Shown here piece by piece: positions 6,019 to 21,182 of a stretch of 28,081 nucleotides of DNA. The stretch is from a virus, in the IMG/VR virus record IMGVR_UViG_3300037225_001244, positions 1 through 28,081 of that record; one strand, 5' to 3'. The notes beneath the pieces are model-generated. The model was not told the origin of the DNA and did not search any database. It worked only from the letters and a program-made list of their open reading frames with translations. Position 1 is the stretch's first letter. Each line of letters opens with the position of its first letter. The translations under genes were made by a program, and so were the position numbers.

Positions 6019-6801
6019 ATGAAGAAGTATTACTATTTATACCAGATCATAAATCTTATCAATGGAAAAATCTACATAGGGGCTCATAGCACAGATAATT
6101 TAGATGACGGGTATTTTGGATCGGGATCTTTGTTAAAAAAGGCCATACGAAAATATGGCCAAGAAAACTTTGTAAAGATTACTCTCTATGAGGTCGGGTG
6201 CTCCGATGACCTTTATAAAAAAGAGGCGGAAATAGTTACTCTTGACTTTGTAGAGCGATCTGATACCTACAATCTAAAAGTTGGTGGCTACGGAGGAACG
6301 ACCCCGAGCATTGAAGTTCGAAATCTTCTCAGCCAGAAAGCGGTTAAGAGGGCCGCGGAAGGGACTGGCACTTTTTCAGAAGAATCCAAACAAAAGATCA
6401 AGCAGTATCAAGATTCCCCTAAAGGTAGAGCTGATAGGCGTCGCGCCTCCCAAATTGCGGCTGAAGATCCTCAAGCCCAGCAAAAAAGAATAGAAGCTCT
6501 TCAAGCTTGGTATGAAACAAACGGATTTCCTACTCGTAATTCCTTTAGAGTAACTAATGGAGAGATAAATCTTACTCTTCGGGCGGGCCGCCCTATTCCT
6601 GAGGGCTTTTGGCAGGGAATTACAAGAATCCATAAAAAAAATTCAAAAATTCATAAAGGAGCTGAAACAAATAATTTTGGAAAAACTTGGTATACAAATG
6701 GGGCTGAGAATCGATTTCTAAAACCAGACGAAATGATTCCTGAGGGTTTTTTTATTGGTCGCACGTGCTCTAAATTAGGTCCAAGAAAAAAGGAGAATTA
6801 G
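6019..6801 (+). CDS. GIY-YIG homing endonuclease, free-standing
   Basis: 260 residues. The GIY-YIG nuclease domain spans about 1-95: LYQIINLINGKIYIGAHST carries the two signature strands (LYQ... and YIG), followed by FGSG and a helix KKAIRKYGQENF. The metal-binding Glu is in KKEAEIVTLDF, followed by the typical YNLKVGGYGG. A charged linker follows. The C-terminal part has two copies of a likely DNA-binding repeat: TNGEINLTLRAGRPIPEGFW (about 174-193) and TNGAENRFLKPDEMIPEGFF (about 226-245). The gene is inserted at the 5' end of the Thg1 gene and is A/T-richer than its neighbours, fitting a mobile intergenic HEG. Confidence 0.9.
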   Translation: MKKYYYLYQIINLINGKIYIGAHSTDNLDDGYFGSGSLLKKAIRKYGQENFVKITLYEVGCSDDLYKKEAEIVTLDFVERSDTYNLKVGGYGGTTPSIEVRNLLSQKAVKRAAEGTGTFSEESKQKIKQYQDSPKGRADRRRASQIAAEDPQAQQKRIEALQAWYETNGFPTRNSFRVTNGEINLTLRAGRPIPEGFWQGITRIHKKNSKIHKGAETNNFGKTWYTNGAENRFLKPDEMIPEGFFIGRTCSKLGPRKKEN

Positions 6802-7553: not shown

Positions 7554-10500
7554 TTATTCAGTGAACTTCAAGCCACCCGGGGCCACACTAAGCCTGAGCA
7601 TGTTGAATACTTGGCTAAGAATGTATTTGAGCTGTTTGCGTATCGCGAGCATATCCCCAGGCATGCCATTTTTGGGCACGATGTATACGATACCTGGTTC
7701 GCCAGTTCGGTAGCCCCAGTAGAAACGAATACTACCTTCCGCATTTGCACCAAGAGAAACGTGGGACGATCCGATGGCACCGAGTTTGATTTGTCCGCTA
7801 GGAAGGATTAGCCCTCGACCGAATGCGTTTAGGATCCCCTGAAGCTGAGCCTCAGAATGAATGTCCTGGTAGCCCACGAATTTCTTGGGGAACTGAAAAG
7901 CGATAGTCTGGACTTGGCGGGATTCTTCAAGTATTACCTGCTTCTCCTGAGCGTCACGCGGCTTGTAGTACCAAAAGGAATTACCCTCATCCCCACTCCC
8001 CATTGTTTGACCTCTACCAAAGAGATCGTAGCCTTTCTTTTTCATACGGGGAGCCAGGGCAGAAATTGGGGATTTCGACGTTCCCAACCTTTCTACACCT
8101 TCCTTTAGCTTCCATTGATAGTGTTGAACATCAACACCCTCTAGTTCTTTGTATCCCTTACCCCGATTATCGGCTGGGCCTATACGTCTACTTTCGACGT
8201 ATTCTTTCTCGTTAATCCTGTTGATCATCTTGTAGGCGGAGGGGGAGATCGAATTGTAGTTGGCCTTGCCGGTAGAGATGACAACGCCTTGTGCCAATAG
8301 ATTCTCGATTAACTGCTCTACATAACCGCGGCCCTTAATTTTTGTCTCCATGTGGCGAATGCTGACATCGTCTTCGTATTCGTTGTCGTTCGCTATAGCG
8401 GCGACTGGCTCATCGTCTTCATAGAGCACCCAACTAGGATATCCTTCGGCATAAGTATTACCTTCAAAAGGCCACTTCTCATAGCGCGCCTCGTGAACTG
8501 GCGTGCGGAGATAATCCTCCGAGCGAGTTCGTGTGTAGGCACTATTCCATGTATTGTCGTCTATTTTGCCGTGCTTGGTGTTACCAGTCCCCCTATTAGA
8601 GGTGGGAACACCATTGAGGCCAATCATATGCTCTGGCGCATGTGCAGCAAAATCCCCGGAAAGCCCAACGCCCCCACTGACCCCGTCTTCTTCTATCGTT
8701 TTGAAGAACTCAGTTAGCGTGTCTTCACGCAAAGAGTTCTTGGTGATGACGATGAAGTGGCAATCCTCGATTTCAAACTCAGAGCGAACCGACCAATCGG
8801 TCAAAGAAGCTACTAGGCGTCGATATAGCCGAGTGCGAGAAGGGGACCGAACCGATACCAACGTGAGACTAGGGTATTCGTTCATGTGTTCTTTGAGAAC
8901 TTGAATCGCAGTGGAGAAGATCCGACCGGCTAAGGAAAGTAATTGAGGAGCCTTCTCTTCATCTCCGGCGCCCAGGTATGCTTCCGAGTTATCTCTCTTC
9001 AAAATCTCGAAGAAGAAGTTGTAGGTTTCTTCAAGAGGAATCTTGGCTTGCCGGACTAATGCGCGATAGGATTCCTTCACATCCATTCCCAGGGATCGGA
9101 ACATCCCCTGAGCCATATGCTCTAGAGGAACAAATGCTCCGACGATATAGTAAGGTGTGTTCTCTATCGGGGCAGCAAACTGATCGTCTTCAAAAGTTGT
9201 AGGATACGGCGTTGCGTTCTCAATAGCGCTCTCGTCCAAAACCCCTTCTTTCAAACGTTCTACCTTACCGAGGCCGTCGCAATACGTGCAGTCTACTTCA
9301 GTGCCATCTCTCTTGGTTCTCTTTCCTGTGCCATTGCAAACGGGGCACTTACCAATATGTTCGAAAAAATCAGTCCCATCTTCGAGTGCCACTTGCTTAC
9401 CGCAGAGCTCGCAATCAACGAAAGCGATGTTACCATCGAATTCGACAACCGGGCCACGATGTTTTTCGCCGCGCAAAGTATCCCACTCGATAACGTCCCC
9501 CAGATGATTATCATAGGAACTTTCGTGTAGGTGGCTTGGTAGGTGATCGTTCTGATCCGCGTGCCTTACCACTGGGCCCAGATATCTGACTTCTCTCTTA
9601 TTCAAATCAAATCCTTTCGCAAGCTCAGGGCCCGCTTTCCCCGCCTCGATATCGTCAAATGAGTTAGGGACATTCTGGTAGCGAGTAGGCCCGCCTTTTT
9701 TGAAGTAATACTTCTTGCTAATACCTTCCTCGAGGATCAAATCATCCAAGTTGTCCCAGTTGGTCAAAGCTTCAAAGTTAGTTACCGAGGTGATCTGCTT
9801 TCTAATGAACTCGATATTAGGGTTTTTTGCCTTAGCAAGTTCAAAGACGTCATGGACATACTTGCTCTTGGTGATATCTTCATAGCTCTCACCAATATAG
9901 ATTTCATCAGTCTCGCCGTTTCGCTGGACCGTGACGCCACCGCCCTTCCCAAGGGCTCGCCACGCGAGCCTTACATCCGAAATAATCCCTTGACGCTGTA
10001 GAGCCTCGAGAAATACCCGGTGGTCTATTTGACTGATGGGCTTCTCATCATTATCGATGTTCTCATAGCCCTCCACATAGAGGTCGCCATCCGTGGTTAT
10101 AAACCCTCGTGCGCCGCTCGCGACATATTTCCTCATCTCCTCTCGGTCAGGGTTCAAATAGACAGAGAGTAACAAGGAGGGCATATTATCCGCTTGATAA
10201 ACCCGCTGCATGGTGACAAACTTCTCCGTTATTTTGCCGCGGAGCTGATCTACTATTGCGTGATCAATTTGCGAATTGTCCTTAGTAGCATCCTCTCCCC
10301 AGAAGCCCATATCTCGAGCGAGCATGGTTTCGATAGCTTCTTCGGATAACTGGGGGCAAACTATGTAGTAGGTCTCTTCGCCGCTATTCCCCGTGACTGC
10401 ATAATTCCATTCAAGATACTTAGCGAGCTGTGCAGCCATGGTTCGATAGGATCTCTGTCGGCTATTGTGATGTTCTTTATCCTCACCTTTGTCCGCACTG

Positions 10501-13500
10501 AATTCGAGAGCGAGAATAAGAGGGTCTTCATTGAGTTTTTCAAGAACGAGTTTTACTATTGTAGCAAGAACACGATACATTACCCTTGGACCCACGTCGA
10601 CACGATCGTAGCTAAAGTCCTCGTTGTCATCCATGTCGTAGGAAACGGTGCCGAAGAGCACGGCCATAGTTTTAGGAGAATCGTCCTTTGCGTAGATACC
10701 CTCTACATTGAACATCGCCTGATACCTGACGCCTGTCTCAGTTTCAAAATCGTAGTGAGGAGTATCCGGAGAATCGTATCGGCTGGTGCGAGTAGGGTAA
10801 GCGTGGCTAAGATCAATGCCCTCTCGAATGACGCTCTCCTCCATTTCAATTTCATCTTCCGATCGAGTATCATCGATGTCTGTGAGACGCGCGGTGCCCG
10901 CTAGGCCGGATCCTAGTCCCCGCCCATTGCCCCAACCTTTGACAGCTATAGAGTCAAAGAAAAACTGCAGTTGAGGATTTCGCTCCTGCGCGGTTTTGAG
11001 CAGATTTTTTACGTATTCTTTTTCGTTCGGGTCGTCGAAAACCAGGTGGCCTCGCCCTGCTTCGCCACCTGTATACTGGCATTCAACGCTTTCGCCAAAG
11101 TAGATTTCATTGGAGTGACCCCACCTCTGGATGGTGATACCCTCGCCAGGTTCCGCACCCCACGAACTCATGACATCCGGCACTATTTTTGGATCGTGAT
11201 CTTGAAGAACTTTGAGAAGGACATTATGCATGATGCTCGATTGCTTTCCGGAACCGCCTTCATCATCTTCATAGCCTTCCATATAGAGGTCACCGGCATT
11301 GGAAATAAAGCCACGAGAGCCGTCGGCAATATATCGCCTCATTTCATCAGGCTCGGGGTTCTTATAGATTGAGAGTAGAACAGATCCACCTGATCGAGGT
11401 CGATAGCGAGCCATAGTTACAAAGCTTTCAGCTAGTGTTCCGTACTTTCCAAGATAGTCTGCGTCGAATTGACCAGCGTCCGGTATTGCATCGATGCGCG
11501 TAGTATCGAAGTCGAACTTAGGGTTCTTCTCCTTGGCCCGTTGTAAAACATTGGTAACCCGCGCATCGTATTCTTCTTGAGACAGATCAGCTAGAAGTTC
11601 ACTATCGAGACTCTCACCCAAATACATTCTGTTGGTCTCGCCGTAGCGCTGGATAGAAACACCACCGACGAGTTTACCCCAGGCACCATCAACATCACGA
11701 AGTATCCCCATGTCCCGAAGAACTTCGAGAAGCGGGCCATGCATGATCTGACTGCCTTGTGCTCGGGAATCAGGATCTTCGTATCCCTCCAAGTACATGT
11801 CACCATTGGTAGTTATGAAGCCACGAGCCCCTACTGCGACAAAGCGTCGAGTCTCATCGCTATCCGGATTCTTGTAAATGGAGAAAAGAATAGTCTTTGG
11901 CTTCCCGCCCATTACCCAGCCAGGGATAGTGGCGTGCGCCATCGTAACGAACTTCTCTTCAAACGTACCTTGAAGGAACTTGTTATAGACATGAGGTTGT
12001 GGCGTCATCATTTTAGGCTTAGGCTTTTTCTTTGGTGCAAGGTCACGTACTAGCTTTGGTATTTTCTCACCCGGAAGATTCCGGTTCTTGTCATCAACGA
12101 GATCCACGATAAATTCGAAATGCGGATTTTTCTTTTGGGCTCGTTTGAACATCTGCGCTACACGTTCTTTGTCCTTCCGATTGTCCAAGTATACCCTTTG
12201 GCCTACAAAGATTATATTGGTAGAGTTCCAACGCTGAATAGTGACGCCGTGGGTTGTGTTCTCCCACTCATATTCTACGCTTTTTATTAGCTTAGGGTTG
12301 AAGCGCTGGAGGGCTTGAAGAACTGCGCCGTGGACGACGCTTGATTTTCTCTTTGATCCGCCTTCTTCCTTCTCATAGCCTTCCATATAGAGATCGCCGT
12401 CGGCAGTAACGTATCCTCGGGAGCCATCTGCGATGAAGCTTTTCACTTCATCAGGAGTGGGATTCAAGTATATGGACATCAGCACAGAAGAGACATGATG
12501 GCCCCACCCGCCTTCGTGGCCTGTGCGTTCCATCGTAACGAACTTTTCTTCGAACACGCCCTGAGCAAACTTATTGTGGATGGTGACTGGTTTTCTAGTT
12601 CTAGTCTTAGCTATTCTTCGCGCGAAGCGCTTGTCATTATCATCGTTAAAACCTGAGAACTCGGATTCAGAATCTTTTTGGTACGGAGTACCTGAGGCTT
12701 GGAAATCTAACCTGGGGTTTTTCTCCCGCGCATGAGCTAATATTTGGGTAATGAGTTTCAAATCCTTTCCGAAAGGGTGCTCAGATAGCAATTCCCCCAA
12801 ATGAATGGTGTTGGTATCCCCGTATCTTTGAATAGTAATTCCGTAGTTGGTAACATTACCCCAGATGTTCCGCTCCCAGCTCATACCGCCAAATATACTA
12901 GGTTTATATTCCTCTAGGGCTTGAAGTATCAGTCCGTGGAGGCAACTCGTTTGCCTTTTGTTTCCTTGACCATCCTTTTCTTCGTAGCCTTCGAGATACA
13001 GGTCGCCATCCCCGCACAAAAAGCCACGTGCACCAATAGCGACATACTTCTTCATCTCATCTTGATCTGGGTTTAGGTAAAGAGACATCAAGAAGGATTC
13101 TCTTGCCATCTTCGGTCGGATGCGAGCCATCGTAGCGAATTTTTCACTCAAGGATTTCGGCGGTGTGCCAATGAAGTTATTCCTTTCAGCCTGACTTGAG
13201 TAAATGCAAATAGGGTAGAAATTGAGATCCGGATTTCTTTCCTTTGCTAGGGCGCAAAGACGATCTAGTTTCTCTTTATTGTTGGTATAAACCCAAGAGT
13301 GAACGCTTTCGCCGATGTAGAAATCAGAGGCATCTCCTTCACGCTGAATCGTGATCCCAAAGTCGCCATCGTAGCAATCATTTCGGATGTGATCGAGGTC
13401 CTCCTTGATAATCCCCTCATCCTTGAGCACCCGCAAGAGAACGGAGTGGGTAATCTGAGAGTATTGCGTGTGGTTTTCCCTTTCGTAACCTTCGAGATAT

Positions 13501-13832
13501 AGGTCCCCCTCAGGGGAGATCCATCCTCGAGCTCCTTCAGGCGCATATTGCTGGAGCTCATCATTGGTGGGATTCTTGTATATTGAAAAAAGCGTGCCAC
13601 TGGAAGTAAGGGGAGCTAAACCTGTTACCTTTCCCATTGTTGCAAAGGCTTCGTGCTTGCGATGGCGCCTTACTTTGCGGTGGCCTTTATGACCTGCAGG
13701 TTTCTTCTCTCCCCACATGCCATACGCTTGTGCGGCAGCTTGCTTGGAATCTTTGCCTTTGTCGGACATGATTTCAGGAATCGCGTGAGAAATGTAGTGT
13801 TGTTTGGATTCACCTTTTGTTGGCCACGGCAT
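7554..13832 (-). CDS. Giant multi-repeat protein, probable virion polyprotein
   Basis: 2,092 residues from ATG 13832, with AAGGGTGG 5 bases upstream (a GTG at 13841 is less likely). The N-terminus (PWPTKGESKQHYISHAIPEI... AQAYGMWGEK) resembles short motifs seen in phage head proteins. Six modules of about 175-200 residues follow (starts near 60, 229, 425, 623, 800, 1201). Each has [V/A]TM, L.SIY.NP..DE, G.RGFI...GDLY.EGYE, H..LL..L, G.TIQR.G.T..I..GES and A..KNP. About 1010-1200 and 1550-1720 carry two related alpha/beta domains. About 1473-1521 carry CxxC pairs including CPVCNGTGK and CTYCDGLGK, like a DnaJ zinc domain. About 1800-1900 look GNAT-like. Function is unknown. Confidence 0.9.
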   Translation of the reverse strand: MPWPTKGESKQHYISHAIPEIMSDKGKDSKQAAAQAYGMWGEKKPAGHKGHRKVRRHRKHEAFATMGKVTGLAPLTSSGTLFSIYKNPTNDELQQYAPEGARGWISPEGDLYLEGYERENHTQYSQITHSVLLRVLKDEGIIKEDLDHIRNDCYDGDFGITIQREGDASDFYIGESVHSWVYTNNKEKLDRLCALAKERNPDLNFYPICIYSSQAERNNFIGTPPKSLSEKFATMARIRPKMARESFLMSLYLNPDQDEMKKYVAIGARGFLCGDGDLYLEGYEEKDGQGNKRQTSCLHGLILQALEEYKPSIFGGMSWERNIWGNVTNYGITIQRYGDTNTIHLGELLSEHPFGKDLKLITQILAHAREKNPRLDFQASGTPYQKDSESEFSGFNDDNDKRFARRIAKTRTRKPVTIHNKFAQGVFEEKFVTMERTGHEGGWGHHVSSVLMSIYLNPTPDEVKSFIADGSRGYVTADGDLYMEGYEKEEGGSKRKSSVVHGAVLQALQRFNPKLIKSVEYEWENTTHGVTIQRWNSTNIIFVGQRVYLDNRKDKERVAQMFKRAQKKNPHFEFIVDLVDDKNRNLPGEKIPKLVRDLAPKKKPKPKMMTPQPHVYNKFLQGTFEEKFVTMAHATIPGWVMGGKPKTILFSIYKNPDSDETRRFVAVGARGFITTNGDMYLEGYEDPDSRAQGSQIMHGPLLEVLRDMGILRDVDGAWGKLVGGVSIQRYGETNRMYLGESLDSELLADLSQEEYDARVTNVLQRAKEKNPKFDFDTTRIDAIPDAGQFDADYLGKYGTLAESFVTMARYRPRSGGSVLLSIYKNPEPDEMRRYIADGSRGFISNAGDLYMEGYEDDEGGSGKQSSIMHNVLLKVLQDHDPKIVPDVMSSWGAEPGEGITIQRWGHSNEIYFGESVECQYTGGEAGRGHLVFDDPNEKEYVKNLLKTAQERNPQLQFFFDSIAVKGWGNGRGLGSGLAGTARLTDIDDTRSEDEIEMEESVIREGIDLSHAYPTRTSRYDSPDTPHYDFETETGVRYQAMFNVEGIYAKDDSPKTMAVLFGTVSYDMDDNEDFSYDRVDVGPRVMYRVLATIVKLVLEKLNEDPLILALEFSADKGEDKEHHNSRQRSYRTMAAQLAKYLEWNYAVTGNSGEETYYIVCPQLSEEAIETMLARDMGFWGEDATKDNSQIDHAIVDQLRGKITEKFVTMQRVYQADNMPSLLLSVYLNPDREEMRKYVASGARGFITTDGDLYVEGYENIDNDEKPISQIDHRVFLEALQRQGIISDVRLAWRALGKGGGVTVQRNGETDEIYIGESYEDITKSKYVHDVFELAKAKNPNIEFIRKQITSVTNFEALTNWDNLDDLILEEGISKKYYFKKGGPTRYQNVPNSFDDIEAGKAGPELAKGFDLNKREVRYLGPVVRHADQNDHLPSHLHESSYDNHLGDVIEWDTLRGEKHRGPVVEFDGNIAFVDCELCGKQVALEDGTDFFEHIGKCPVCNGTGKRTKRDGTEVDCTYCDGLGKVERLKEGVLDESAIENATPYPTTFEDDQFAAPIENTPYYIVGAFVPLEHMAQGMFRSLGMDVKESYRALVRQAKIPLEETYNFFFEILKRDNSEAYLGAGDEEKAPQLLSLAGRIFSTAIQVLKEHMNEYPSLTLVSVRSPSRTRLYRRLVASLTDWSVRSEFEIEDCHFIVITKNSLREDTLTEFFKTIEEDGVSGGVGLSGDFAAHAPEHMIGLNGVPTSNRGTGNTKHGKIDDNTWNSAYTRTRSEDYLRTPVHEARYEKWPFEGNTYAEGYPSWVLYEDDEPVAAIANDNEYEDDVSIRHMETKIKGRGYVEQLIENLLAQGVVISTGKANYNSISPSAYKMINRINEKEYVESRRIGPADNRGKGYKELEGVDVQHYQWKLKEGVERLGTSKSPISALAPRMKKKGYDLFGRGQTMGSGDEGNSFWYYKPRDAQEKQVILEESRQVQTIAFQFPKKFVGYQDIHSEAQLQGILNAFGRGLILPSGQIKLGAIGSSHVSLGANAEGSIRFYWGYRTGEPGIVYIVPKNGMPGDMLAIRKQLKYILSQVFNMLRLSVAPGGLKFTE
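9760..10240 (-). repeat. Sixth copy of the protein module, separated from the others
   Basis: Approximate span. It begins ITEKFVTMQRV and contains LLSVYLNPDREEM, GARGFITTDGDLYVEGYE, GGVTVQRNGETDEIYIGES and AKAKNPNIEF. It is separated from copy five by an unrelated domain of about 200 residues. Confidence 0.75.
10980..13655 (-). repeat. Five tandem protein modules in the giant gene
   Basis: Approximate span. The modules start HEAFATMG, LSEKFATMA, FEEKFVTME, FEEKFVTMA and LAESFVTMA. The DNA copies have diverged (different codons), so the duplication is old and is seen mainly at protein level. Linkers differ; copies two and three end in Lys/Arg/Pro-rich tails (KTRTRKPVTIHNKF, KKKPKPKMMTPQPHVYNKF) that resemble each other. 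Confidence 0.8.
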
Positions 13833-13843
13833 GCTTACCACCC

Positions 13844-13980: not shown

Positions 13981-13989
13981 CTAATTAGT
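13981..13989 (-). promoter_or_regulatory. Putative ACTAATT promoter, also encodes a stop codon
   Basis: On the minus strand ACT AAT TAG is both the last Thr-Asn-stop of the HEG and the motif 2 bases before ATG 13978. Confidence 0.5.
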
Positions 13990-14793
13990 AACTTCTGCTT
14001 GCTTGACTCTTATTTTCGCGCGAGCCTCTTTCATAAAACGGCTTCTTTCTTCTTTTCTTCTTTCTTTTTCTTCGGGTGATAAAAGAGCAAGAGTGGCTCT
14101 CCGTTTTTCCATAATTTTATCCCAATACTCTTGAGGCTTCGCGCGCTGGGTTTTACTTAATTTTTCCGCGCGACCTTGCTGGGCAGAGAGTATGCCCCCT
14201 TCTCGTAATTTTTGTCGGTATTCTTCTTTTTCTTCCGGACTTTTATTTTTCATAGTTTGTATTCGTTTTGGGACGGCTTTTGCTGACCTTGATTTTCCCG
14301 TATTAGAAATCTTTTGTTTGTAGACAACCATACGAGCGTCAGCTTCTTCTTGGCCATATTTTTCAATCCATAATTGGTATAATGAGAGCCTACCTTTTTG
14401 TGCTAACGGATTATTGGATGTCCTTTCTTTTTTTCCTTTTCGGGAAGAATCAAACCACCCCCAATTATTTAATCCTAATTTAGGAGCCCGAAGATTCATT
14501 AAGTCCAAAGTCTCTGCCTTCATCTCCCAGTATAAGGAATCTTCTATACTAAGAGCTTCATCATAAGAGTCGCAAGTTAAAATAATTTGGAAATTAAAAG
14601 AGGACAAACCAGATTTCTTAATAAGACGCTTTACGACTTTGGAGCTTGTAAAGTAGCGAATAAAAAAGTCCTCTCTGGGGGAAAAGTTTTTATGAACATT
14701 TCGACCGCGAGAGCCAATATACCATTTATTTGTAGGTAGGTAATGGAGCAAATAGACATAAGGATAAACTTCATCAGGCCGGCAATGATACAT
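13981..14793 (-). CDS. GIY-YIG homing endonuclease, free-standing
   Basis: 270 residues. The GIY-YIG domain lies at about 9-105: YVYLLHYLPTNKWYIGSRGR has the two signature strands, and the likely catalytic Glu is in SIEDSLYWEMKAE. Next comes LYQLWIEKYGQEEADARM (about 140-157), the WIEKYG-type motif also seen in the HEG at 19402 (YMIDKYGEEAGRKRF). The C-terminus is very Lys/Glu/Arg-rich (SPEEKEEYRQKLREGG, LSPEEKERRKEERSRF). The DNA is clearly more A/T-rich than its neighbours. It is inserted between the 202-aa gene and the 44-aa ORF, and its stop codon comes from the downstream promoter motif. Confidence 0.85.
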   Translation of the reverse strand: MYHCRPDEVYPYVYLLHYLPTNKWYIGSRGRNVHKNFSPREDFFIRYFTSSKVVKRLIKKSGLSSFNFQIILTCDSYDEALSIEDSLYWEMKAETLDLMNLRAPKLGLNNWGWFDSSRKGKKERTSNNPLAQKGRLSLYQLWIEKYGQEEADARMVVYKQKISNTGKSRSAKAVPKRIQTMKNKSPEEKEEYRQKLREGGILSAQQGRAEKLSKTQRAKPQEYWDKIMEKRRATLALLSPEEKERRKEERSRFMKEARAKIRVKQAEVTN

Positions 14794-18081: not shown

Positions 18082-18831
18082 ATGGGAATAATTTACAAAG
18101 TGACATGCATTGTCACTCAGAAGGTTTACGTTGGGCAGACGATTCGGAAGTTTCGCGAACGCATAGCCGGCCATTTTTCACTAAAGGGGTGTAAGCACCT
18201 TCATTCGGCATTAATGAAATATGGTCGTGAAGCTTTTATATGGGAAATACTTGAAGAGCAGGAGTTTCCCGAGGCCCTTAACGAGGCTGAAGCTCGGTGG
18301 ATCAAGTTTTACGATTCAACAAATCCGGAGCGAGGTTATAATTTAACCGAAGGAGGGACTCGTGCGGCAACGAGGAAGTGGACAGAGGAACAAAAGCAAA
18401 AACAAAGTGAAGACTCCCGTCGACGTATTGCTGCTATGACCCCCGAGCAAAGACTCATTTTTGGGAGTCAGAGGGGAGTCGAAAAATCTGAAGAGACTAA
18501 GCAAAAGATGTCTGAAAGTCATAAAGGAGTTCCTTTTACTGAAGAGCGCCGAAAGGCCCTTTCGAAAGCTTGGGAATCAAGATCAAGAGAGGTTTCGGAA
18601 GAAACCCGGCAAAAAATAGGCGCAGCGAGTAAAGGAAGAACTCACGAGGTCTCAGAAGAAACTCGCCAAAAAATTAGTAAGGCAAATAAAGGTAGAATCC
18701 CAGAATTCTCGGAAGAGACCCGACAAAAGATATCCACTTCAAACAGAGGTAAAATACGCTCAGAAGAAGCCCGCGAGCATTATCGACAAGCGATGAAAGC
18801 CGCGTGGGCGAAACACAAACAAAAGGAGTAA
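18082..18831 (+). CDS. GIY-YIG homing endonuclease with NUMOD3-like repeats
   Basis: 249 residues from ATG 18082; a TTG at 18076 overlaps the previous stop and is less likely. GIY-YIG domain at about 1-95: IIYKVTCIVTQKVYVGQTIR (signature strands and the conserved Arg region), then KFRERIAGHF, the Glu in NEAEARWIKFY and YNLTEGG. From about 110 to 230, repeated SEETRQKIS..NKGR units are typical NUMOD3-type DNA-binding modules (SEETKQKMSESHKG, SEETRQKIGAASKG, SEETRQKISKANKG, SEETRQKISTSNRG). It lies between the winged-helix gene and recA. Its end carries AAGGAG, the ribosome site of recA. Confidence 0.93.
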   Translation: MGIIYKVTCIVTQKVYVGQTIRKFRERIAGHFSLKGCKHLHSALMKYGREAFIWEILEEQEFPEALNEAEARWIKFYDSTNPERGYNLTEGGTRAATRKWTEEQKQKQSEDSRRRIAAMTPEQRLIFGSQRGVEKSEETKQKMSESHKGVPFTEERRKALSKAWESRSREVSEETRQKIGAASKGRTHEVSEETRQKISKANKGRIPEFSEETRQKISTSNRGKIRSEEAREHYRQAMKAAWAKHKQKE

Positions 18832-18832
18832 T

Positions 18833-19351
18833 ATGGCTAGCCCGCTACACCTCGCTCTCACAAAGCTACAAAAAACCTATAAGGATGCTGTGCGAGACGT
18901 AAACACGTCCGGCATCATCGAACGTTTTTTCTTAGAGAGCCCACAATTGAACTTCCTCTTTGGAGGGGGTTATCCTATTGGTCGAATCATCCAGCTTCAC
19001 GGTCCTGAGTCTGGTGGCAAGTCAACTCTCGCAACCTATATCGGCGGCGAAGTCCAGCGCAAGCGCAAGGACGAACACAATGTCGTTGTCTACGTAGACT
19101 TCGAAAGAACGTTCGAAACGACATTCGCTCAGAAGCTCGGCCTCATGACAGACACCGATCATCTTGTTTTCCTTAGACCCGAAAACGGGGAGGAGGCTTT
19201 TGAAATCTGTCAAGAGCTCCTTCGCACCAATTCAATCGGCCTCGTTATTTGGGATTCGGATACGACGACTCCCTCGGCCGCGCAGATCAACGACGAATAT
19301 GGTAAGGCTTGTGTTTTTCCAGACACGGAGGTCAATTTCCGAATAGCATGA
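18833..19351 (+). CDS. RecA/UvsX-type recombinase, N-terminal half fused to split-intein N-fragment
   Basis: 172 residues. The first 159 are the N-terminal RecA core. Walker A is GPESGGKST (57-65), YVDFERTFETTFAQKLG follows the RecA strand with its conserved acidic residues, and GLVIWDSD forms the Walker B region. The last extein residues are QINDEYGKA, in the loop L1 region. Residue 160 is the Cys that starts a 13-residue intein block (CVFPDTEVNFRIA), then TGA. The product lacks loop L2 and the filament half, so alone it should be inactive. It is expected to trans-splice with 20082-21182 to give a RecA of about 361 residues. AAGGAG precedes the ATG. The terminator hairpin at 19357 follows. 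Confidence 0.9.
   Translation: MASPLHLALTKLQKTYKDAVRDVNTSGIIERFFLESPQLNFLFGGGYPIGRIIQLHGPESGGKSTLATYIGGEVQRKRKDEHNVVVYVDFERTFETTFAQKLGLMTDTDHLVFLRPENGEEAFEICQELLRTNSIGLVIWDSDTTTPSAAQINDEYGKACVFPDTEVNFRIA
19310..19348 (+). other. Split-intein N-fragment (13 residues)
   Basis: CVFPDTEVNFRIA matches intein block A: nucleophilic Cys1, then x-x-x-D-T-x-V. It ends just where the C-fragment begins (MTILDLFKTAG), which reads as the direct continuation of the block A region of a normal intein. Known atypically split inteins such as AceL-TerL have a 25-residue N-fragment, so 13 is unusually short. Confidence 0.85.
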
Positions 19352-19356
19352 TGCCT

Positions 19357-19400
19357 AACCCCCGAATGATGCTACCACTAATTAGTCATTCGGGGGTTTT
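19357..19400 (+). terminator. Terminator hairpin with a promoter motif in its loop
   Basis: AACCCCCGAATGA (19357-19369) and TCATTCGGGGGTT (19386-19398) are perfect 13-base arms, with T at 19397-19400. The 16-base loop contains ACTAATTAG. Transcripts arriving from recA-N would form the hairpin; transcripts started at the loop motif would contain at most its right arm. Confidence 0.7.
19377..19385 (+). promoter_or_regulatory. Putative ACTAATT promoter of the intein-associated HEG
   Basis: ACTAATTAG lies 16 bases before ATG 19402, inside the loop of the 19357-19398 hairpin. No Shine-Dalgarno is clear, other than the GGGGG of the right arm. Confidence 0.55.
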
Positions 19401-19401
19401 G

Positions 19402-20085
19402 ATGTATTACATTTACAAGATTACCAATAAAATTACGGGCAAGATCTATGTCGGCCGCGGAACGATTAGAACAAAGACATACGGACCTGAACATGATCAC
19501 TATTATGGATCTGGAAGGGTAATTAAACGATCCCTAGCCAAATACGGAAAAGAAAACCATGTCAAAGAAATTCTAGAAGAATGTGAATCTTTGAAGGTTG
19601 CTTTGGAAAAAGAAGTTTACTGGATTAAAGCATTGGATGCTCTCAATCCTGAAGTTGGATATAATTTGACATTGGATAGCTGCGGCTTTACATCCGAAAC
19701 AGCTAGCGCCACTGCGAAGAGATTCTACGCTTCTCTTACAGAAGAACAAAAGCAGATACTATATGAACAAAGAGCTATGGAGATGCGAAAAAAGATTAAT
19801 GTGATAAGCGCATCATCTAAACAAATGTGGGCTAACATGTCCGAGAATAAATACTCTGAAGTAATCGCTAAGTTGAAAGATTCTTGGACACCAGAAAAAC
19901 GAGAGGCACAGAGACAAAGATTATCCGGAAGTAAGCGAAAGAATAATTTGGAGTATATGATAGATAAATATGGTGAAGAGGCAGGCCGTAAACGTTTTGC
20001 CGAATGGTCGAAGAGACATAAAGAGGCCTGCGCGGAAGCAGCAACGAAACGCCGTATATTAAAGCAAACACAGGAGAACAAATGA
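19402..20085 (+). CDS. GIY-YIG homing endonuclease inside the split intein
   Basis: 227 residues from ATG 19402 (the open frame extends upstream through the terminator to 19309, which is unlikely to be coding). GIY-YIG domain at about 1-95: YYIYKITNKITGKIYVGRGT, then the YGSGRVIKRSLAKYGKENH helix, Glu in LEKEVYWIKAL and GYNLTLDS. The middle is charged and helical. YMIDKYGEEAGRKRFAEWSK (about 188-207) is a motif shared with the HEG at 13981. The gene sits between the two intein fragments, where ordinary inteins carry an endonuclease domain, but is a separate ORF. Its TGA overlaps the ATG of the intein C-fragment gene (ATGA), so that gene depends on its translation. Confidence 0.92.
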   Translation: MYYIYKITNKITGKIYVGRGTIRTKTYGPEHDHYYGSGRVIKRSLAKYGKENHVKEILEECESLKVALEKEVYWIKALDALNPEVGYNLTLDSCGFTSETASATAKRFYASLTEEQKQILYEQRAMEMRKKINVISASSKQMWANMSENKYSEVIAKLKDSWTPEKREAQRQRLSGSKRKNNLEYMIDKYGEEAGRKRFAEWSKRHKEACAEAATKRRILKQTQENK

Positions 20086-20570
20086 CTATATTAGATCTTT
20101 TCAAGACAGCAGGATATGAAGATTACGAAAAGATGGAAATTGATAGGCCTTATCCGCCAAAAGTAAACATTGAAATACTTTCTTGTAACCTGTCGGGTGC
20201 AAATGAGAACCTATTTACTAGCGGACTGGGCTCTGAACTTTTTGAATACAAAAAAGTAAATGCTCTTTTTTATAAAGGTAAATCAAAAGGGTATAAAGTC
20301 CAATTCTATGGAACCAGCACTTCTTTTATGTGCACAGGATCCCACACATTCTTCGTTCGAATTGACGCCCCCGTTGGTGATACTGGAGTGTGGCACAGAC
20401 ATGGTGAATGGAGAACTGCGGATAGCCTCGGCTCCTCATTCTGGGGGTACTCTGAGACTGGGGGGTATACTGAAGTCAGCCTAATTAAGACTGATGAAGA
20501 GTTCCCTGTTTTAGATGTGGAAGTCGCTGACAATTGTAATTATGTGAGTAACGGGATTGTATCCCACAAT
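20082..20570 (+). other. Split-intein C-fragment (163 residues)
   Basis: Blocks B, F and G are present and the fragment ends His-Asn before Ser. Its length is large because the break lies only 13 residues into the intein. No LAGLIDADG endonuclease domain remains within it. Confidence 0.88.
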
Positions 20571-21182
20571 TCCTTTGGAGGCAGCGCCAAACTCATGTCG
20601 GAGGCTCTACGTAAATTCAACCCGCTACTCGAGAAGTACAAGACCTCGATGTTCATGATCTCCCAAGAGCGAGATAACATCGGTAGTAATGGATATGGCC
20701 CAGACTACAAGGTAACGGGCGGCCGCGCGATCAAGTTCTACGCCTCCAATCGTTCTCGCGTCCAGAGAGTTGACTACATCAAGGAGAAGGGAATCATCAC
20801 CGGCATCCAGATGAGAGTCAAGAACGAAAAAAATAAAGCGGGCATCCCTTATCGCGAAGCGATGCTTACTCTTGACTTCGAGAAAGGCTTTGACATCAAC
20901 AATGAATATATGGACTTCATCATTTCATTAGGAATCGCGGAACAGAAGGGCGCTTGGTTTTATATGCCGCAATATGGCCTTGAGAAGGCTAATGGTCGAG
21001 ACGCTGTTCAAGCGTGGCTGAATCTCCACCCAGAAGAGTATGCTAAAGTCAAGCTGGAAGTTAATACCCAGCTCACCGGCGAAACTATCCTCGACCAGGA
21101 CAACGCGCCTGTAGCAGACGACGATTTCGATGAGCCGCCGGAGATCATACCGGACACTCCAGAATCAATTTCCCTTGAGTAA
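20082..21182 (+). CDS. Split-intein C-fragment fused to RecA C-terminal half
   Basis: 366 residues. Residues 1-163 are the intein C-fragment: MTILDLFKTAG continues block A, SFMCTGSHTFFVR (about 84-96) is block B (T-x-x-H), VLDVEVADNCNYVSNG (about 143-158) is block F, and IVSHN followed by Ser is block G with the His-Asn pair and the +1 nucleophile. Residues 164-366 are the RecA C-terminal half: SFGGSAKLMSEALRKFN, the L2 region MISQERDNIGSNGYG...VTGGRAIKFYAS, ITGIQMRVKNEKNKAG and an acidic tail rich in Asp/Glu (DNAPVADDDFDEPPE). The ATG is coupled to the HEG stop; the terminator follows. All core intein residues look intact, so trans-splicing is plausible. Confidence 0.92.
   Translation: MTILDLFKTAGYEDYEKMEIDRPYPPKVNIEILSCNLSGANENLFTSGLGSELFEYKKVNALFYKGKSKGYKVQFYGTSTSFMCTGSHTFFVRIDAPVGDTGVWHRHGEWRTADSLGSSFWGYSETGGYTEVSLIKTDEEFPVLDVEVADNCNYVSNGIVSHNSFGGSAKLMSEALRKFNPLLEKYKTSMFMISQERDNIGSNGYGPDYKVTGGRAIKFYASNRSRVQRVDYIKEKGIITGIQMRVKNEKNKAGIPYREAMLTLDFEKGFDINNEYMDFIISLGIAEQKGAWFYMPQYGLEKANGRDAVQAWLNLHPEEYAKVKLEVNTQLTGETILDQDNAPVADDDFDEPPEIIPDTPESISLE

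What the first reader, a model, noticed from the sequence alone, without database searches (positions are those of the whole stretch)
18833..21182. RecA gene fractured by a split intein with a 13-residue N-fragment and a GIY-YIG HEG between the halves
The sequence shows RecA-N ending in CVFPDTEVNFRIA then stop, a separate GIY-YIG ORF, and an ORF starting MTILDLFKTAG with intein blocks B, F and G ending VSHN before Ser, then RecA-C. Joining the two intein pieces gives one continuous intein of 176 residues. Fractured genes with split inteins and HEGs, and atypical inteins with short N-fragments (AceL-TerL, 25 residues), are known. A 13-residue N-fragment in a recombinase loop L1, with a GIY-YIG rather than LAGLIDADG partner, is at the extreme of that range. 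A tiny IntN would be useful for peptide ligation.
Basis: partly seen in the sequence, partly recalled or inferred. Interest (0 to 1): 0.92.

Follow-up and report, generated by a model that had tools for sequence, protein, structure and literature searches.

The report
Split-intein phage recA with homing gene
A large-phage recA gene is cut in two by a self-removing protein element (a split intein) whose front piece is only 13 residues, shorter than any natural one in the literature read here, with a DNA-cutting "homing" gene between the halves; the arrangement is known but rare, and the tiny piece could be useful for protein labelling if it works.

Summary
RecA-N (18833-19309) runs into CVFPDTEVNFRIA and a TGA. 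A GIY-YIG ORF (19402-20085) follows. An ORF at 20082-21182 then carries a 163-residue intein C-fragment ending IVSHN, directly before Ser and RecA-C.

Both splice junctions are fixed independently. Intact RecAs of related 300-kb phages read GKA|xFGG without a break (260 loci, 164 distinct sequences, none interrupted). The 13-mer is the best of 34,623 window 12-mers against an intein N-block profile. A profile of seven phage inteins scores the joined intein 42.8 bits; shuffles reach at most 10.8.

Best reading: a naturally split class 1 intein broken at the atypical "S1" site, in a fractured gene with a Seg-like homing endonuclease between the halves. Splicing is inferred, not shown.

The parts are known: VidaL (16 aa) and PolB16 OarG (15 aa) share the split site, and AceL NrdHF has a GIY-YIG gene between its halves. 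I also found unannotated S1-split fractured genes in Pseudomonas phage PA5oct (uvsX, 17 aa) and an uncultured phage (phoH-like, 26 aa). What is new is the RecA L1-loop site, the GIY-YIG plus S1 combination, and a record-short natural IntN if it splices.

The parts
18833..19309 (+). RecA N-extein (159 aa), ending ...INDEYGKA; preceded by AGGAG a few nt before the ATG
   Evidence: PF00154 and phrog_97 matches; ungapped alignment to intact phage RecAs
19310..19351 (+). IntN: CVFPDTEVNFRIA (13 aa) then TGA stop (19349-19351)
   Evidence: Starts exactly at the RecA junction; rank 1 of 34,623 window 12-mers against an independent intein N1 profile; resembles CVHPDTKIKIRY (L265), CLPETAKVKIRL (PA5oct) and CLYPDEKIKIYK (LR756500)
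19357..19398 (+). Perfect 13-bp inverted repeat (14-bp predicted stem) between IntN and the HEG; its 3' arm contains GGGGG, 5 nt before the HEG ATG: candidate RBS-sequestering hairpin
   Evidence: Fold -26 kcal/mol, z -5.2, 0 of 200 shuffles as good; inverted repeat. Regulatory role is inferred from T4 HEG hairpins (PMC2988022)
19402..20085 (+). Seg/I-TevI-like GIY-YIG homing endonuclease gene between the intein halves (227 aa from ATG 19402; alternative ATG 19348)
   Evidence: phrog_314 E 2.7e-28; TIGR01453 51 bits, just under its cut-off; Seg-like hits in phages
20082..20570 (+). IntC (163 aa): TxxH block B (CTGSH), block F/G ...VLDVEVADNCNYVSNGIVSHN; AGGAG a few nt before the ATG, ATGA overlap with the HEG stop
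   Evidence: TIGR01443 over cut-off; PF14890; phage-intein HMM 41.1 bits; the 29 best Foldseek hits of a weak model are all inteins or intein-like domains
20571..21182 (+). RecA C-extein (203 aa), starting with Ser (+1 nucleophile), SFGGSAKLM...
   Evidence: PF00154, PF21096, TIGR02012; alignment A2
18082..18831 (+). Neighbour, not part of the intein: free-standing GIY-YIG/NUMOD3 HEG inserted directly upstream of recA
   Evidence: PF01541 and PF07460 over cut-off; absent in L012, where the orthologue of the preceding gene (33% id) overlaps recA

Best explanation
This is a mobile 'fractured gene' element in the recA gene of a large phage related to 300-kb phages. A class 1 intein lies in the RecA L1 loop between Ala159 and Ser160. 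It is split at the turn after its second beta strand (S1 site) into a 13-aa IntN on RecA-N and a 163-aa IntC on RecA-C, and a Seg-like GIY-YIG homing endonuclease gene fills the break. Inferred mechanism: the three ORFs are translated from one message, and IntN docks into IntC. Cys1, the block B TxxH, the penultimate His, the terminal Asn and Ser+1 carry out trans-splicing, giving one 362-aa RecA. The endonuclease cuts empty recA alleles during co-infection, so the 1,261-bp unit is copied by recombination. A hairpin over the endonuclease's ribosome site probably limits its expression. Shown: anatomy, junctions, motifs, relatedness. Inferred: splicing, homing, hairpin control.
For: Junctions are defined by gapless alignment to intact RecAs; 260 loci (164 distinct sequences) have an unbroken site, including DEYGKA|SFGGSA in L095. 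All class 1 catalytic residues are present, read directly. Intein models match and the phage-intein HMM gives 42.8 bits against at most 10.8 for 3,000 shuffles. IntN is rank 1 of 34,623. Insert GC3 is 0.36-0.37, like the window's other HEGs (0.33-0.41), against 0.56-0.60 in the exteins. SD sequences precede both recA ORFs. RecA catalytic motifs are conserved in both exteins. The same layout occurs in PA5oct uvsX and LR756500 phoH-like, and PA5oct IntC matches VidaL structure 6vgv at E 8.5e-36. GIY-YIG precedent: AceL NrdHF.
Against: No splicing or cleavage data. The intein is very divergent: direct phmmer against PDB inteins is not significant. Adding IntN raises the HMM score by only 1.7 bits. 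Block F has Cys where the compared inteins mostly have His (NCNY vs NHNY). A 13-aa IntN lies outside the natural range reported. AlphaFold confidence is low (mean pLDDT 32 and 40). The layout rests on one metagenomic contig with no close relative found.
Confidence: 0.82

Rival explanations
1. Genuine split intein by descent but no longer active, or very slow; the phage uses an unspliced or host RecA, or the copy is decaying.
For: Block F His is replaced by Cys; IntN is shorter than any natural one reported (PMC13014065); divergent sequence.
Against: All three ORFs are open, both recA ORFs have SD sequences, nucleophiles and the TxxH and HN motifs are kept, and RecA motifs are conserved. An artificial 11-aa IntN (M86) splices well (PMC13014065).
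Confidence: 0.12
2. Genes in pieces without splicing: a HEG simply split recA and the two polypeptides assemble non-covalently, as for Aeh1 NrdA split by mobE.
For: Precedent for functional HEG-split phage enzymes (PMC2988022).
Against: The extra residues are intein sequence starting and ending exactly at the junction, which this reading does not predict. L1 is a loop inside the RecA core.
Confidence: 0.03
3. Group I or II intron, or another RNA-level insertion, with an intronic GIY-YIG ORF; the protein motifs are coincidence.
For: GIY-YIG HEGs are typical of group I introns (TIGR01453 51 bits); there is a strong hairpin.
Against: No Rfam intron match even at a relaxed threshold. IntC is in frame with RecA-C with its own SD and start. 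Intein models match.
Confidence: 0.01
4. A variant of the best reading, not exclusive of splicing: the intein and the HEG are separate elements. The HEG is a free-standing Seg gene that landed in the intein and now protects itself there, while the intein itself has lost mobility.
For: Three other unlinked GIY-YIG ORFs in the window share 35-36% identity with it over the nuclease domain; a second HEG sits just upstream of recA.
Against: HEGs lie at the same S1 break in PA5oct and LR756500, so the position is recurrent. This differs from the best reading mainly in what the nuclease cuts.
Confidence: 0.25

Closest known systems
PA5oct/MIJ3-group UvsX split intein (NC_071039.1; found here, annotated only as hypothetical protein and UvsX/RecA)
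   Same: Phage recombinase gene in two ORFs; S1 split (IntN 17 aa, IntC 128 aa); HEG-like ORF between the halves; large phage
   Different: Inserted in Walker A (GESG|SGKS), not L1; the ORF between is not GIY-YIG and has no detectable relation to the window's HEG
VidaL intein (PDB 6vgv/6vgw), IntN 16 aa
   Same: Natural split after beta strand 2 (S1), cysteine-dependent (PMC13014065)
   Different: IntN three residues longer; the window intein has no significant direct match to it. That its host gene is uvsX is from memory
PolB16 OarG intein (PDB 8cpn/8cpo), IntN 15 aa
   Same: S1 split; previous shortest natural IntN (PMC10189870)
   Different: Ser1/Ser+1 cysteine-less; DNA polymerase host; two residues longer
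AceL NrdHF intein
   Same: Phage fractured gene with a GIY-YIG HEG between the intein halves (PMC7891396)
   Different: Class 3, canonical split (98 + 48 aa), ribonucleotide reductase host
LR756500 PhoH-like fractured gene (uncultured 462-kb phage; found here)
   Same: S1-type split, HEG-like ORF between the halves, IntN starts CLYPDEKIKI
   Different: IntN 26 aa, PhoH-like host, ORF between weakly related to PA5oct's, not GIY-YIG

Membership tests
Class 1 intein (Hint) | Cys or Ser at position 1, exactly at the N-extein junction | tested here: met
   Cys at 19310-19312 directly after the conserved GKA
Class 1 intein (Hint) | N1 block resembling known inteins | tested here: met
   Rank 1 of 34,623 positions; TIGR01445 over its full length finds nothing
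Class 1 intein (Hint) | Block B TxxH | tested here: met
   CTGSH, aligned with CTGNH of Spl DnaX and with phage inteins
Class 1 intein (Hint) | C-terminal His-Asn followed by Cys/Ser/Thr+1 | tested here: met
   IVSHN|S; TIGR01443 over cut-off
Class 1 intein (Hint) | Hint fold | tested here: inconclusive
   pLDDT 40 model; the 29 best Foldseek hits are all inteins or intein-like domains but E > 0.001
Class 1 intein (Hint) | Self-splicing activity | not testable with these tools
   Needs expression
Naturally split intein, atypical S1 type | Intein in two ORFs, break after beta strand 2 | tested here: met
   By sequence alignment: the break follows EVNFRI-A, the strand aligned with KVKIRL of PA5oct
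Naturally split intein, atypical S1 type | IntN of 15-37 aa (reported natural range) | tested here: not met
   13 aa; a descriptive range, not a mechanistic limit (PMC13014065; artificial M86 IntN is 11 aa)
Fractured gene with HEG | Host gene broken into two ORFs by split intein halves with a HEG between | tested here: met
Fractured gene with HEG | HEG of the family first described in Dassa 2009 | not tested
   That paper is not held; the HEG here is GIY-YIG, and AceL NrdHF shows GIY-YIG also occurs
GIY-YIG homing endonuclease, Seg/I-TevI type | Domain match and conserved core | tested here: met
   phrog_314 E 2.7e-28; PF01541 22.7 bits at a cut-off of 22.6; YIY...YVG, R, E..WI and GYN motifs read by eye
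VidaL subfamily | Direct significant similarity to VidaL | tested here: not met
   6vgv not among phmmer hits at E 10; only a profile of its phage relatives detects the window

The most novel reading that the evidence does not exclude
Because the intein sits in the L1 DNA-binding loop of a recombinase, trans-splicing by a 13-residue IntN may depend on single-stranded DNA or on RecA filament state. RecA would then mature only when recombination, including homing of the element itself, is under way. Nothing here tests this; a splicing switch through intein-extein contact is reported for the Pyrococcus horikoshii RadA intein (PMC5790916, title and abstract start only).
Probability: 0.06. Interest if true: 0.8.

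Novelty: new member of a known kind. Interest (0 to 1): 0.52.

Why it matters
If it splices, this would be the shortest natural IntN in the literature read here (13 aa against 15 for PolB16 OarG and 16 for VidaL). It would be a cysteine-dependent IntN that is trivial to make by peptide synthesis, and it comes from a sequence group far from those in use. It adds an intein site inside the L1 loop of RecA, and shows with PA5oct and LR756500 that the S1 break is repeatedly filled by unrelated homing genes in large phages. That makes it testable whether homing genes create S1 splits.

Tried and rejected
Group I/II intron: Rfam gave only chance matches. Close relatives of the fracture: single-protein scans of viral and genome collections found none, and N-extein and C-extein alignment scans found only unbroken recA. 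Inteins elsewhere in 16 related contigs: none. The long tblastn hits H1-H3 that seemed to cover the intein were intact RecAs aligned loosely. Plasmids: no match. Intrinsic terminator at the hairpin: not called by the terminator scan (its loop limit is 8 nt, here 14-16), so attenuation is not excluded. phrog_9666 (a RecA-like family that also matched the intein end) was considered as a same-site intein, but the profile coordinates do not fit.

Full report
WHAT IS THERE. The window is a 28,081-base virus record. Its recA is in two pieces. ORF 18833-19351 encodes 159 residues of RecA followed by CVFPDTEVNFRIA and TGA. A GIY-YIG ORF runs to 20085; its best start is ATG 19402, and an in-frame ATG at 19348 overlaps the IntN stop. 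ORF 20082-21182 starts inside the HEG stop (ATGA) and reads MTILDLFKTAG...NYVSNGIVSHN, then SFGGSAKLM, the rest of RecA. AGGAG stands a few nt before both recA starts.

THE JUNCTIONS ARE INDEPENDENTLY FIXED. PF00154 matches both pieces, and phrog_97 ends at position 188 on one and resumes at 189 on the other. The joined RecA aligns without a gap at the junction to intact phage RecAs. An alignment-based scan found close empty-site relatives: L012/L013 (305-kb and 111-kb contigs, 55% identity), then L094-L101 and L053. They read GKA|DFGG, GKA|SFGG, GKA|NFGA and GKA|TFGG. In all, 260 fetched loci (164 distinct RecA sequences) are unbroken there, also when the scans were anchored on the N-extein or C-extein alone. 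The insertion point is in a conserved motif; by alignment with cellular RecA it is loop L1 (the loop numbering is from memory). The window's clamp loader and another gene are also related to those 300-kb contigs (50% and 37% identity).

IT IS AN INTEIN. NCBIfam intein_Cterm is over its cut-off (22.3 vs 15.6 bits; 25.9 in the genome search, though that short model also rings in most control genomes). PF14890 is below its cut-off (24.7 vs 35.8 bits). Cys1, block B CTGSH, penultimate His, terminal Asn and Ser+1 are all present. One departure: block F has NCNY where most of the compared inteins have His (NHNF or NHRY). An HMM built from seven other phage inteins (PA5oct, SCTP-2 twice, L265 twice, L266, LR756500) scores the joined intein 42.8 bits and IntC 41.1; the best of 3,000 shuffles scores 10.8 and the next window ORF 2.1. 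IntN adds little to that score, so I tested it separately: against an N1 profile made from seven other phage inteins it is first of 34,623 stop-free 12-mers in the six-frame window, and it lies exactly at the predicted junction. AlphaFold models are of low confidence; still, the 29 best Foldseek matches of the second are all inteins or intein-like domains, at E between 0.008 and 0.7. I count that as weak support.

THE SPLIT. The break comes straight after the strand EVNFRI, and IntC begins with a short strand and helix, MTILDLFKTAG. The literature calls this S1: natural S1 splits are VidaL (16 aa) and PolB16 OarG (15 aa, "record-short"), and natural atypical IntN range over 15-37 aa; an artificial M86 IntN of 11 aa works (PMC13014065; PMC10189870). 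So 13 aa is beyond the natural record but inside what has been made to work.

RELATIVES FOUND ON THE WAY. In Pseudomonas phage PA5oct and its group (11 records with identical IntC) uvsX is fractured the same way...MFAGESG|CLPETAKVKIRLSKKQS-stop, a 477-aa ORF, then a 128-aa IntC before SGKS. The IntC matches VidaL at E 8.5e-36. The MIJ3 paper describes a split PolB intein with an HNH HEG but has no mention of RecA. Salicola phage SCTP-2 has the same uvsX intein unsplit. An uncultured 462-kb phage has a phoH-like gene broken by a 26-aa IntN, a HEG-like ORF and an IntC. The window's GIY-YIG protein is not related to those ORFs.

THE HEG. It is Seg/I-TevI-like (phrog_314 E 2.7e-28). The catalytic residues of that family look present by eye. 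A perfect 13-bp inverted repeat (-26 kcal/mol, z -5.2) sits between IntN and the HEG, and its 3' arm holds GGGGG just before ATG 19402. T4 HEGs are held back by hairpins over their ribosome sites (PMC2988022), so the same role is inferred here. Insert composition (GC3 0.36-0.37) matches the window's other HEGs and not the recA exteins (0.56-0.60).

MECHANISM. Shown: anatomy, junctions, motifs, relatedness. Inferred: co-translation, docking of IntN, trans-splicing to a 362-aa RecA, homing by cleavage of empty alleles, hairpin control. The main doubt is activity, given the short IntN and the block F change. A second doubt is whether the nuclease homes the whole unit or is a Seg gene that settled there; that rival is compatible with splicing, so its probability overlaps with that of the best explanation.

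KNOWN OR NEW. Each ingredient has a precedent: S1 split (VidaL, PolB16), GIY-YIG gene between halves (AceL NrdHF), and a fractured phage recombinase (PA5oct, found here). I therefore file it as a new member of a known kind, with moderate interest. The founding paper on fractured genes (Dassa 2009) and the VidaL paper (Burton 2020) were not available to read, so an earlier mention of this contig cannot be excluded.

Noticed in passing
L268:2263-5269 (NC_071039.1, Pseudomonas phage PA5oct; same layout in MIJ3, L275): uvsX is a fractured gene with an S1-split VidaL-type intein (IntN 17 aa, IntC 128 aa) and a 477-aa HEG-like ORF between; annotated only as hypothetical proteins and UvsX/RecA. IntC identical in 11 records.
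   Followed up: partly
L274:662-3924 (LR756500.1, uncultured 462-kb phage): PhoH-like gene broken by an S1-type split intein (IntN CLYPDEKIKIYKMKSKNKINSKNQQE, 26 aa) with a 430-aa HEG-like ORF between, weakly related to the PA5oct one.
   Followed up: partly
L269:2797-4782 (Salicola phage SCTP-2): Single UvsX ORF holding two contiguous inteins, one at the Walker A site used by the PA5oct split intein: an apparent unsplit counterpart.
   Followed up: partly
L265:1962-4940 (IMGVR_UViG_2651869530_000001): gp41-1-like phage record with a canonical IntC fused to UvsX-C, a gp41 helicase with a contiguous VidaL-like intein and then a gp41-1-like split intein.
   Followed up: no
window 18082-18831: Second GIY-YIG/NUMOD3 HEG wedged between recA and the gene that overlaps recA in L012: two HEG insertions within about 2 kb around one recA.
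   Followed up: partly
window 6019-6801 (+) and 13981-14793 (-): Two further GIY-YIG ORFs with low GC3 (0.33-0.34); four such genes in 28 kb.
   Followed up: no
window 7554-13841 (-): A 2,095-aa ORF with several degenerate internal repeats of about 200 aa (motif KFVTM...LLSIYKNP...GARGFI...GDLYLEGYE); no function looked up.
   Followed up: no
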